29,399 nucleotides of DNA from positions 1 through 29,399 of IMG/VR virus record IMGVR_UViG_3300023301_000062. The stretch is one strand, 5' to 3'. Under the pieces are notes generated by a model. That model made no database searches, was not told the DNA's origin, and saw only the letters and a program-made list of their open reading frames with translations. A program made the translations under genes and the position numbers. This document shows, one piece after another, positions 22,813 through 25,969 of the stretch (positions are counted from its first letter, which is position 1; every line of letters starts with the position of its first letter). Source of the DNA: a virus.

Positions 22813-24738
22813 TTACGCAGCCCGCTTACTTAGGGCTTTTGAAATGGTGGTCATGATAGTGCCGAGCAATTCTGCTTCGGTGAGTTTGTCCACAAGCTTG
22901 TTGTTCAATTGAGCTACCCGCTTATGGATCTCATCGTAGTCAAACTGGGCATCCAGTAAGATGTAGGCGTACTTGATCAGTTGGTTGTTGCGGTTACCGT
23001 CACCGGTGTTGTTGATCACCCAACGCTCCAGGTTGTCCAGAGACTGTTGAGAGTCCACCACACGCTTACGTTCCTCGTTCTTACTGGTCTTCGGTATGAA
23101 CGCCAGGGCATCCAACAACTGGCCGTCGTTGTACTCGTAGTGGCCGTCATGGGACAGCCATTTGCGGGCACGTTGACTGGTCGCTGTGTCCACCTCGAAG
23201 GGGAGCCATTCATAAATGTTGTGCATGAACTCCTTGAAGTCCTTGGCATCCAGCTTCAACTCATAATTGATCGGCAGAATGATCCGGTACCGGTTCTCCT
23301 CTTCGGTGTGGCGCTTGGTGCAGTAGATTAGGGAGGTGTAGTCCTTCAGCAGACTTTGTGCCGTTGCCATAGGTACACCGTGATCCACATCAATAACCAC
23401 AATATTGAACCCAGGTAGGGCATTCTCTTCTTGACGGTGCCCGTCCTTCAGGTGGTGATTGACCCAGTGCATCCCACTGGCTTGCGTAAGCTGGTGCAGC
23501 TTGGTGAAGGGTGCCACTTCGTTGGCGTAGCCCACGGCGATGTCTTCGCTGTAACTGATACAGATCTTGTTGAGATCGGTCTTCTTCAACGTCTCACCCC
23601 GTAAGAACTCAATCCCATCGGTGTAGGTCTTCTTGATGATGATGTTGTTCTTGTACCCGTGACCAATGGCTAGGTTCAGCATGTCGGTACGGGCACTGTT
23701 GGTTTTAGGGTAGAACGGTAGGTCGTTCACCAGGTCGGCGTGGGTCACGTCTTCTTGTAATTCAGCGATGTACTTCGCCAGTTTAACGTAAGGCTTGTCC
23801 CGGGTGAGTAGGCTGTCAAACGCGACACCGGATTCCTCGACCAGCTTGATTGCTTGTTCAAGGTTGGCTTCGGTAATGTCCGGTGAACCATCTACGAACG
23901 CATAGGCGCCGGCCAGTTTGGTGGCCTTGAAATAACGGTGAGCCATTTCTGCCTTACGCATCTCATCGTGTTCCCGGAAGTGCGTTGCACGTTCTTCACA
24001 GGTCAGGCGGTACAGGATAAACAGCTTGGCCACACGTTCACTCATCACCAGTTTGCGGTTGATGTTGATCATGTCAGCAAGTGATTCAAAATGATCCGAG
24101 ATCTGCTCCAGGTACGAGTCCGTATCGGTGTTGGTCAACAGTGCGTAGACCTCATCCACGGTCATCGAGATGTCACGTTCATGGCCCTTGGCGTATCCAA
24201 AGAGGCAGCGCCGTGCATAACCCGTATCGAGCCAGGAGTAGAACTCTTCCTCGACCTTGGCACCATCAAAGACTTTACTAGGTGTGCCATACATCATCAT
24301 GTTGGTGGGGGTATTGCCTTGCAGATCCTCAGCCCGGATGTTTTCCTTGGTGTTCTTGGTCATCTTCTGTTTGATCTTGCCTACGTCGTACAGTTCCAGG
24401 TACGCATTTAGGGCTTCACCGGAACCGGTGAGGTTCGAACCAATCTCATCAATTTGAAGGTTCAGGGCACCGGCGTCTGCCATCTGCAACTTGTACCTTG
24501 CTTGCTTGAGAGCCGCTTCGGTACCGTTGTCAAAGGAGAACAGTAAGGCGCCTTGTGCTTTGAATTCTGCCTTGGTTCGTTCCAACTCCTCATCCGGGTC
24601 GGTGCCTTCTGCACTGGCTCGGCGTATGGAGATTTTAGGTAGGTTGTCTTCTGCCAGGAGCTTGAAGGTTTCATGGACGAACCGTTGTTGGAATTGACCT
24701 ACCACCTGTTCTTCCATGACGTTCGTAGACAAGCCTTT
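22813..24738 (-). CDS. Primase/ATPase, exon 2 (residues 82-722)
   Basis: This 641-codon exon joins to exon 1 (25969-25727) after removal of a group I intron, giving 722 residues. The apparent TTG start at 24750 is intron sequence. Exon 2 opens with the P-loop lysine (K82 GLST), followed by Walker B LQIDEIG (D178, E179) and MYGTPSKVFDG with LDTGYARRCLFGY, a layout I associate with DUF3987-like phage ATPases. The C-terminal part carries the archaeo-eukaryotic primase signature: VVIDVDHG (D531, D533), CTKRHT (H558) with NRYRIILP, and VDTATSQRARKWL (D598). It should unwind DNA and make primers at the fork. It lies between RecB-type nuclease and RecA-like ATPase genes. Confidence 0.88.
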   Translation of the reverse strand, partial: KGLSTNVMEEQVVGQFQQRFVHETFKLLAEDNLPKISIRRASAEGTDPDEELERTKAEFKAQGALLFSFDNGTEAALKQARYKLQMADAGALNLQIDEIGSNLTGSGEALNAYLELYDVGKIKQKMTKNTKENIRAEDLQGNTPTNMMMYGTPSKVFDGAKVEEEFYSWLDTGYARRCLFGYAKGHERDISMTVDEVYALLTNTDTDSYLEQISDHFESLADMININRKLVMSERVAKLFILYRLTCEERATHFREHDEMRKAEMAHRYFKATKLAGAYAFVDGSPDITEANLEQAIKLVEESGVAFDSLLTRDKPYVKLAKYIAELQEDVTHADLVNDLPFYPKTNSARTDMLNLAIGHGYKNNIIIKKTYTDGIEFLRGETLKKTDLNKICISYSEDIAVGYANEVAPFTKLHQLTQASGMHWVNHHLKDGHRQEENALPGFNIVVIDVDHGVPMATAQSLLKDYTSLIYCTKRHTEEENRYRIILPINYELKLDAKDFKEFMHNIYEWLPFEVDTATSQRARKWLSHDGHYEYNDGQLLDALAFIPKTSKNEERKRVVDSQQSLDNLERWVINNTGDGNRNNQLIKYAYILLDAQFDYDEIHKRVAQLNNKLVDKLTEAELLGTIMTTISKALSKRAA

Positions 24739-24820
24739 CGTTATGTTCAAGGAGGCTCGTTACACCTCCCCCGCAACATTACTTGCAGCTTATGCTTTCA
24801 CATAAGACCAGACTATATCT

Positions 24821-25447
24821 TCATCTCCACAAATCATTGAATACACATTTCTTACACGCGGTAATCTCTGCTCGCCTAATACGACCTACTTCAATATTCT
24901 GGTTTTTACCACATATACATGTACATTTAATATAGTGTTTCTTACACCTGTACTCTGCGTATGCGCCTATAGACCAGGCATTTACGGTAGTGCCACTTAG
25001 GACTGCAAACTCGAAGGATAGATTTTCTAATGCCTTCTTACCTGCGGCTTTACCTGCGTTACTTTGAGAGGTGAATAACCTACCTTGCTTTTGTGCATGT
25101 AGCATATTCTCTGTGTGTGTACACCATTCCAAATTACTACGGACGTTGTGCTGACCGTTATTGTCTTTATGGTTTACGCAAACCTGATTGATGTTACCAC
25201 CAGGTATAAATGCTTGGGCCACTAGACGATGTACCTGGTGCCGCTTCACAGAATGATTCTTACTCAGAGTAACCCGGCAGTATGTGGTGTGATCCCGTTT
25301 AATTAATTCTTTCCGTAATAAACACTCAGGGTAATTTTGTAGGTTACCTCTAACATTAATAACGGATCGTTTTAATGACTTCACATCACCACAATCACTG
25401 ACTTGGTATAAACCTTCGTATCCTTTAATGTCTTTCCAAAGCTTCAT
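24821..25447 (-). CDS. Intron-encoded NUMOD4/HNH homing endonuclease
   Basis: A 208-residue protein in the P6a loop of the intron; ATG preceded by AAGGA at about 8 nt. Residues 4-25 (WKDIKGYEGLYQVSDCGDVK) are a NUMOD4 DNA-binding motif. The HNH nuclease core follows: HRLVAQAFIPGG (H73), VNHKDNNG (H93) and NVRSNLEWCTHTEN (N105). The C-terminus YIKCTCICG, then ACKKC, looks like a zinc-binding DNA-recognition domain (C175, C177, C179 with C198 and C201). It should nick or cut intronless alleles of the primase gene and so spread the intron. Its stop codon lies inside the 3' strand of P6a, so translation reaches the ribozyme core. It is more A+T-rich than its neighbours, as expected of a mobile ORF. 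A 7-bp hairpin (25466-25488) lies upstream of its ribosome site. Confidence 0.93.
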   Translation of the reverse strand: MKLWKDIKGYEGLYQVSDCGDVKSLKRSVINVRGNLQNYPECLLRKELIKRDHTTYCRVTLSKNHSVKRHQVHRLVAQAFIPGGNINQVCVNHKDNNGQHNVRSNLEWCTHTENMLHAQKQGRLFTSQSNAGKAAGKKALENLSFEFAVLSGTTVNAWSIGAYAEYRCKKHYIKCTCICGKNQNIEVGRIRRAEITACKKCVFNDLWR

Positions 25448-25465
25448 ATTACTTTCCTTTTGGTA

Positions 25466-25488
25466 GTTGCTAGATTAATAGTAGCAAC
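25466..25488 (-). promoter_or_regulatory. Hairpin upstream of the homing endonuclease ribosome site
   Basis: GTTGCTA at 25466-25472 pairs with TAGCAAC at 25482-25488 around a 9-nt loop, within the P6a loop and just 5' of the HNH ribosome site. T4 intron ORFs are translationally controlled by hairpins in this place; here the AAGGA itself is not inside the stem, so any control would be indirect. Confidence 0.4.
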
Positions 25489-25726
25489 AACGCATAAGGA
25501 AAGTGGAGTTGTCTCCCGTTTCGAGTTCACTTGAACCCTAAGTCTTTCGACTAGTCGTTGAACGTTCACCTAGACGGTGCTTCGCTGCTGATTGCCTAAT
25601 CCGTATGCTTTTTAACATTCACGCTTACCTTTTCAAGTTACGTTGTAGTGCATAAGGCTCTAAAGGGTTTCCAGCAATTAGAGAGATTTGCTATACCCAT
25701 CGCTGGGTAAAGGGGCTAATATTTCA

Positions 25727-25969
25727 ACCCGCGCCAGACGTAGCCAAATTTATGGCATACAGGTTCACTGGTATCTTGCCCCGGTCGTGCGTGATGATTG
25801 TGGTACGCATCATGGAAGCCATGACGGAGAAGTAGTAACCCACCAGGACTCGGAAGAACAGGGGATTGGTGTTCTGGGTTTTACTGCACAGTATCTGTGC
25901 CAGCTTGTCTGCAACGGGATGATGGTCCATCTCGTCGTAAGGCCGTAGCCTAAGATCGTCGGAAGACAT
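25727..25969 (-). CDS. Primase/ATPase, exon 1 (residues 1-81)
   Basis: An 81-codon exon from an ATG with AGGA 8 nt upstream, 14 bp after the nuclease stop. In-frame codons further upstream lie inside the nuclease gene, so this ATG is preferred. The protein begins MSSDDLRLRPYDEMDHHP, has a hydrophobic FFRVLVGYYFSVMAS, and ends INLATSGAG, the first half of the Walker A loop. The next triplet in genomic sequence is a TGA stop inside the intron, so without splicing the product would be an 81-residue stub ending in the middle of the ATP-binding site. Exon 2 supplies K82 and everything downstream. Confidence 0.9.

What the first reader, a model, noticed from the sequence alone, without database searches (positions are those of the whole stretch)
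24739..25726. td-like group I intron splits the P-loop codons of a phage primase/ATPase
Seen directly: exon 1 ends ...SGAG, the next genomic codon is TGA, and 988 nt later the frame resumes KGLST. Joining GGT to AAA restores a P-loop and one 722-residue protein with Walker B and AEP primase motifs. The intervening RNA matches the T4 td core, P8, P9 and 3' end almost motif by motif. An intron exactly between the Gly and Lys of Walker A targets the codons least able to change, so an intronless copy is always a homing target, and loss must be precise. The intron may also act as a switch on primase production. I know of no such intron in this gene of N4-like phages.
Basis: partly seen in the sequence, partly recalled or inferred. 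Interest (0 to 1): 0.8.

Follow-up and report, generated by a model that had tools for sequence, protein, structure and literature searches.

The report
Mobile intron inside a phage ATP-binding motif
A self-splicing RNA intron carrying its own DNA-cutting enzyme sits exactly in the ATP-binding codons of a virus's primase gene; the same position was already interrupted in known cholera phages, and its relatives turn up in the ATP-binding motif of several unrelated genes, as if the family specialises in that motif.

Summary
Window 25726-24739 (minus strand, 988 nt) is a group I intron (RF00028, 58.6 bits, E 1.2e-12). Splicing 25727 to 24738 restores a 722-aa N4 gp43-type primase/ATPase, and two 82%-identical (DNA) relatives are uninterrupted there.

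The claim that no such intron is known in this gene is wrong: Vibrio phages JA-1, VCO139 and JSF3 carry a homologous intron at the identical codon boundary (SGYG|KG), and Fouts et al. 2013 noted the split gp43 as a possible intron. So the element is a new member of a known kind.

The larger result is new to me. The endonuclease belongs to a clade in which 18 of 22 recognisable introns lie in Walker A codons of different ATPases (gp43 primase, gp24 MoxR, other AAA, PhoH, SF1 helicase); 11 of these were recovered by endonuclease similarity alone. Most likely this is a P-loop-homing intron lineage. A switch on primase production is unsupported. Splicing and cleavage remain untested experimentally.

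The parts
25727..25969 (-). exon 1 of gp43-type primase/ATPase (81 codons, ends ...ATSGAG, last nt U)
24739..25726 (-). group I intron, 988 nt (IA-type, P7.1/P7.2 present), ends in G
   Evidence: RF00028 58.6 bits E 1.2e-12; helices and covariation; empty alleles L007/L008
22813..24738 (-). exon 2 of primase/ATPase (KGLST... to stop)
24821..25447 (-). intron ORF, 208-aa NUMOD4-HNH homing endonuclease with C-terminal Cys pairs; its 3' end overlaps the P8 3' strand
   Evidence: NUMOD4 E 5.7e-11, HNH_3 E 4.5e-5 (slightly below cut-off); phrog_59 E 4.1e-37
25724..25730 (-). P1 5' strand GGGU^UGA across the 5' splice site
   Evidence: sequence
25713..25719 (-). P1 3' strand / internal guide UUAGCCC
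   Evidence: sequence
25552..25556 (-). P7 5' strand GACUA
24811..24815 (-). P7 3' strand UAGUC
25503..25508 (-). P8 5' strand CUCCAC
24825..24830 (-). P8 3' strand GUGGAG (last codons of the endonuclease ORF)
25451..25504 (-). hairpin burying the Shine-Dalgarno AAGGA of the endonuclease ORF (about -21.6 kcal/mol for the folded region)

Best explanation
A mobile, self-splicing group IA intron interrupts the Walker A codons (Gly|Lys) of the gp43 primase/ATPase of an N4-like (Schitoviridae) phage. Step 1 (strongly inferred from RNA anatomy): the transcript splices itself at U(25727)/G(24739), restoring the intact primase. Step 2 (inferred): the HNH endonuclease encoded in the P8 extension cuts intronless gp43 alleles near the P-loop codons, and repair copies the intron in. 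Step 3 (inferred): a hairpin hides the endonuclease's ribosome-binding site in the long transcript, so ribosomes do not disturb the intron core and endonuclease output stays low. At the lineage level this endonuclease belongs to a clade that has colonised P-loop codons of several non-orthologous ATPases; most likely its DNA recognition is matched to P-loop coding sequence, while the ribozyme's guide sequence pairs with the motif's glycine codons. The confidence below is for the mobile-intron reading; for lineage specialisation see the section on the most novel reading.
For: Intron: (U at exon 1 end, G at intron end; guide covaries with exon codons, e.g. GGUGUU/GACACC against GGAAUU/GAUUCC). 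Empty sites: L007/L008 at 82% nt; JA-1 intron-plus versus phi 1 intron-minus with no differences in the first 236 nt of gp43 coding sequence, which span the site. Endonuclease. Hairpin in 7 of 7 ORF-bearing introns tested, T4 precedent PMC2988022. Lineage: same gp43 site in JA-1/VCO139/JSF3, L181, L187, L280, L338, L341, L342; about two codons upstream in L281 and L334; gp24 MoxR P-loop in JA-1, L088, L172 and Pollock; AAA in L287 and L360; PhoH in L282 (PF02562 E 7.8e-36); SF1 helicase in L345 and L352. Trees.
Against: No RNA or protein data: splicing and cleavage are unproven. In the broadest tree the clade (93/90, bootstrap not settled) also holds two introns in GHKL-type glycine loops (L357, L363), two at other sites (L349, L353) and four HNH genes without a recognised intron, so P-loop preference is not absolute. 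pSb-1/PW8 carry related HNH introns in gp24 outside the P-loop. The internal promoter seen in 4 of 7 relatives is not significant in the window (p = 0.575). The insertion register differs between genes (G|K, x|GK, G|xGK), and DNA similarity of the gp24 and gp43 sites is modest (39-43% in P-loop register, 22% in junction register).
Confidence: 0.9

Rival explanations
1. Ordinary group I intron with no P-loop specialisation: introns and inteins survive best in conserved motifs in general, and P-loops are simply conserved, so repeated P-loop occupancy is convergence.
For: PMC2814812 shows the general bias. P-loop inteins are common (PMC5050341). The same 3'-end pattern also finds introns at a conserved RpoB-like NKG site. 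Registers differ between genes.
Against: The P-loop introns carry mutually closest endonucleases: 11 of 11 in one clade at 100/99 against the 40 nearest others then known. Eleven P-loop cases were recovered by endonuclease similarity alone. Convergence would scatter them over the HNH tree.
Confidence: 0.3
2. The intron mainly serves the phage: the endonuclease is a weapon against co-infecting intronless relatives, or splicing times primase production.
For: An intron endonuclease of phage PhiPA3 contributes to interference competition (abstract of PMC11620839, listed). Intron-minus relatives exist.
Against: No regulatory feature acting on splicing was found. Uninterrupted gp43 is the rule: in 461 of 470 phage records one place covers at least 80% of the query. 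The competition role is untested here and compatible with the best explanation.
Confidence: 0.15
3. The element is a decaying copy: it splices but its endonuclease is dead or the intron no longer homes.
For: The HNH_3 match is just under the Pfam cut-off (23.4 against 24.8 bits). No clear promoter in the window copy.
Against: The ORF is intact at 208 aa and keeps the residues invariant among relatives at 34-51% identity. A second contig carries the identical intron although the two contigs differ at 43 positions over about 7.4 kb.
Confidence: 0.15
4. The insert is coding (intein or extra domain) or an assembly artefact.
For: None found.
Against: Stops in all frames; second contig L009 with the identical intron; conserved RNA structure.
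Confidence: 0.01

Closest known systems
gp43 intron of Vibrio phages JA-1, VCO139 and JSF3 (Pacinivirus; HNH genes M612_gp56 / HYO77_gp56 / HYP07_gp045)
   Same: Same gene, same codon boundary (SGxG|KG), same NUMOD4-HNH family (48% identity), ORF in the P8 extension, hairpin over the ribosome-binding site
   Different: Different phage; exon 2 products about 43% identical; 1047 nt instead of 988; near-consensus promoter inside the hairpin (TTGACA-17-TAGATT) that the window copy lacks
P-loop introns of N4 gp24 (MoxR AAA+) in JA-1 and Escherichia phage Pollock
   Same: Related IA-type intron in Walker A codons; the JA-1 copy has a related HNH gene
   Different: Non-orthologous host gene; insertion one codon earlier (GSPGx|GKS); the Pollock copy has no ORF
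T4 td intron / I-TevI
   Same: Similar P7'-P9-3' end (71% over 89 nt); hairpin-hidden ribosome-binding site (PMC2988022)
   Different: GIY-YIG enzyme, ORF upstream of P7 rather than in P8, host gene thymidylate synthase
P-loop inteins (e.g. mycobacteriophage TerL1-a/b)
   Same: Homing elements in Walker A codons of many ATPases (PMC5050341)
   Different: Protein splicing rather than RNA splicing; inserted before Cys/Ser/Thr (PMC2814812)
td intron of N4-like phage pVa5
   Same: Group I intron with HNH gene in an N4-like phage (PMC5746245)
   Different: Different host gene

Membership tests
Group I catalytic intron (RF00028) | covariance-model match over the gathering score | tested here: met
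   58.6 bits against 50, full model length
Group I catalytic intron (RF00028) | U at 5' exon end paired with G of the guide; G at intron end | tested here: met
   GGGU/GCCC in P1, last intron nt G at 24739
Group I catalytic intron (RF00028) | conserved P3-P9 core incl. P3/P7 pseudoknot, with covariation | tested here: met
   17 of 36 pairs with two-sided changes, 0/500 shuffles
Group I catalytic intron (RF00028) | GTP-dependent self-splicing | not testable with these tools
   needs in vitro transcription or RT-PCR
Subgroup IA2 (td-like) | P7.1 and P7.2 helices between P7 and P3 | tested here: met
   both present and covarying; the subgroup definition is from own knowledge
td intron proper | td gene site and GIY-YIG ORF | tested here: not met
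   different gene, HNH ORF in P8 extension
NUMOD4-HNH homing endonuclease | NUMOD4 and HNH_3 domains | tested here: met
   NUMOD4 42.9 bits, over cut-off; HNH_3 23.4 against 24.8, but PHROG 59 HNH E 4.1e-37
NUMOD4-HNH homing endonuclease | cuts intronless target DNA | not testable with these tools
   no biochemistry
N4 gp43 DNA primase family | spliced product matches phrog_2135 over full length | tested here: met
   1076 bits, residues 10-719
P-loop (Walker A) at the junction | strand, Gly-rich loop, Lys starting a helix; usually GK[ST] | tested here: met
   geometry in model; invariant SGxGK in 68 proteins, GKT in some; weak Foldseek match to MCM AAA+. The window protein itself has GKG

The most novel reading that the evidence does not exclude
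There is a lineage of phage group I introns whose NUMOD4-HNH endonucleases are specialised on Walker A coding DNA. It has moved between at least four non-orthologous ATPase families (primase gp43, MoxR/AAA, PhoH, SF1 helicase). This RNA-splicing counterpart of P-loop inteins would aim at a protein motif rather than at one gene, with the ribozyme's guide re-adapting to the glycine codons at each new site.
Probability: 0.6. Interest if true: 0.7.

Novelty: new member of a known kind. Interest (0 to 1): 0.5.

Why it matters
The single intron is ordinary in mechanism and its site was already occupied in published phages. The lineage matters more: it gives natural replicates of an intron family found in the same protein motif in unrelated genes. 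That makes testable how homing elements jump between genes: does one endonuclease read P-loop codons across ATPases, and does the ribozyme guide evolve to fit? It also shows that gp43 and gp24 entries annotated as short 'hypothetical protein' or 'ATPase' fragments in phage genomes are exons of spliced conserved genes.

Tried and rejected
Coding or intein insertion: rejected, stops in all frames.
Novelty of the site: rejected after finding JA-1/VCO139/JSF3.
Internal promoter in the window copy: not significant (p 0.575), although 4 of 7 relatives have one at p <= 0.003.
Direct DNA-level identity of gp24 and gp43 targets: only modest, best in P-loop register.
P-loop-only clade: clean in two trees, but wider sampling nested non-P-loop members in it, so the claim was weakened to strong enrichment.
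Co-conversion scar around the JA-1 site: not supported; the flanks are more similar to phi 1 near the site, not less.
T4 td was looked for at the wrong coordinates first.
An automatic P-loop junction screen missed true cases and gave false ones, so final junctions were read by hand and checked. The L334 junction read on codon boundaries broke the U/G rule; reading it one nt later (TCAGGGT| ... AATATG|TCGGTAAG) restores it, by eye only.

Full report
OBSERVATION. The minus strand reads exon 1 (25969-25727) to SGAG with GGT, then TGA; the frame resumes at 24738 with AAAGGCTTG (KGLST). Joining them gives 722 residues. The spliced protein matches the N4 gp43 primase family over its whole length (phrog_2135, 1076 bits; DNA primase in hundreds of N4-like phage records). 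Rfam finds one group I intron in the window, RF00028, 58.6 bits, E 1.2e-12. Two viral contigs, L007 and L008, encode the same protein at 89% (82% DNA) with no interruption, so the empty site is real. A second contig, L009, carries the identical intron although it differs from the window at 43 positions over about 7.4 kb.

ANATOMY. P1 spans the 5' splice site as GGGU^UGA/UUAGCCC with a U.G wobble; the intron ends in G. P3, P4, P6a, P7, P7.1, P7.2, P8, P9, P9.1 and P9.2 can all form (helices picked by hand). On eight related introns 95.4% of base-pair cells are standard, 17 of 36 pairs change on both sides, and no shuffle out of 500 reaches this; sliding the partners drops pairing to 34-45%. The structure was drawn from these sequences, so the slid control flatters it somewhat. 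The 988 nt hold a 208-aa ORF (25447-24821) with NUMOD4 and HNH motifs, placed in an extension of P8; its last codons form the P8 3' strand. Just upstream the Shine-Dalgarno sequence lies in a strong hairpin, as in all seven ORF-bearing introns tested; four of the seven also hold a near-consensus sigma-70 promoter inside it, but the window copy does not. This copies the layout of the three T4 intron endonucleases (PMC2988022), where the hairpin protects splicing.

THE SITE. The junction falls between the Gly and Lys of SGAGKG. SGxGK is invariant in 68 uninterrupted homologues, some with GKT. An AlphaFold model of the L007 protein (pLDDT 87) shows strand 70-74, a loop, and a helix starting at that Lys; Foldseek gives weak matches to MCM-type AAA+ helicases. 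It is a P-loop.

WHAT IS ALREADY KNOWN. Vibrio phages JA-1, VCO139 and JSF3 have gp43 cut at the identical boundary, SGYG|KGHAT, by a 1047-nt intron with a 48%-identical HNH gene, while their relative phi 1 is uninterrupted and identical through the first 236 nt of the gene. Fouts et al. 2013 (PMC3670811) reported that HNH genes split gp24, DNA polymerase and gp43 and may be carried on introns. Another N4-like phage, pVa5, has a td intron (PMC5746245). My literature searches found no description of the P-loop position, but only open-licence papers are held.

THE LINEAGE. Following the endonuclease rather than the gene gave the unexpected part. Related introns sit in Walker A codons of: gp43 in L181, L187, L280, L338, L341, L342 (G|K, as here), L281 and L334 (G|xGK); gp24 MoxR in JA-1, L088, L172 and Pollock (GxPGx|GKS; Pollock's has no ORF); AAA proteins in L287 (GPPGG|GKT) and L360 (GQAGN|SKS); a PhoH-like protein in L282 (AGTG|KT; PF02562 E 7.8e-36); SF1 helicases in L345 and L352 (GAAGx|GK[TS]). 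All read with U before and G at the end of the intron (directly; L334 only after shifting by one nt, by eye). Only some reach Rfam's cut-off, probably because of the long ORF. L181, L187, L172 and Pollock were found with P-loop patterns and are biased; L280, L281, L282, L287, L334, L338, L341, L342, L345, L352 and L360 were fetched by HNH similarity alone, and are 11 of 15 such clade members with a recognisable intron.

TREES. With 89 HNH proteins the seven P-loop enzymes then known form one group (99/86) split by host gene. With 51, eleven of eleven group at 100/99. With wider sampling the clade (93/90, bootstrap unsettled) has 26 rows: 18 Walker A introns (17 labelled in the run, L360 recognised afterwards), two in GHKL-type glycine loops (L357, L363), two at other sites (L349, L353), four with no intron recognised. 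So the lineage is strongly enriched for P-loops but not confined to them.

MECHANISM. Shown by sequence: intron structure, splice-site rules, intact ORF, hairpin, empty alleles, shared clade. Inferred: self-splicing, cleavage of intronless DNA, repair-mediated homing, recognition of P-loop coding DNA. Changing registers within the motif fit an enzyme that reads the conserved motif at a distance while the ribozyme guide pairs with whichever glycine codon lies at the insertion point. Conserved sites also hinder loss and escape (PMC2814812), and P-loops are a favourite site of inteins (PMC5050341), so convergence on a conserved motif remains the main rival.

VERDICT. The element is a new member of a known kind, embedded in a lineage pattern that I judge worth a specialist's attention.

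Noticed in passing
L192:2878-3340 (Escherichia phage Pollock NC_027381): An ORF-less group I intron (RF00028, 101 bits) splits the gp24 P-loop; exon 1 is annotated only as an 87-nt hypothetical protein (ACQ44_gp30). A second HNH gene interrupts the same gene downstream.
   Followed up: partly
L193:2171-3250, L194:2171-3250 (phages pSb-1, PW8): gp24 ATPase split by an HNH-bearing intron about 30 codons after the P-loop (APEDLN|), another intron position in the same gene.
   Followed up: partly
L357:2122-3203 and L363:1877-2960 (approximate): Introns of the same clade inside a glycine-rich loop (GTFG|IGRMAGLA) of what looks like a GHKL-type ATPase, analogous to but not a Walker A motif.
   Followed up: partly
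L175, L177, L182, L189, L191: Introns with the same 3' end pattern lie before a KGV codon pair in what looks like the RpoB HGNKGV motif of large phages.
   Followed up: no
L187:7316-7550 (-): A second group I intron match (60 bits) on the same contig as the gp43 intron.
   Followed up: no
L350:3100-3320: A helicase-like frame with a stop at the P-loop codons (SAVAGA*LASKTYT) downstream of a related HNH gene, with a second similar exon-1-like stretch upstream of it; possibly a rearranged or decayed intron site.
   Followed up: no
window:28471-29397 (-): Ribonucleotide-reductase-like ORF cut by the window end; only its first 179 residues match the family profile (positions 500-668), leaving about 125 unmatched C-terminal residues.
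   Followed up: no
L007:2195-4357: The N-terminal half of N4 gp43-type primase models as a P-loop ATPase with weak structural similarity to MCM AAA+ helicases.
   Followed up: partly
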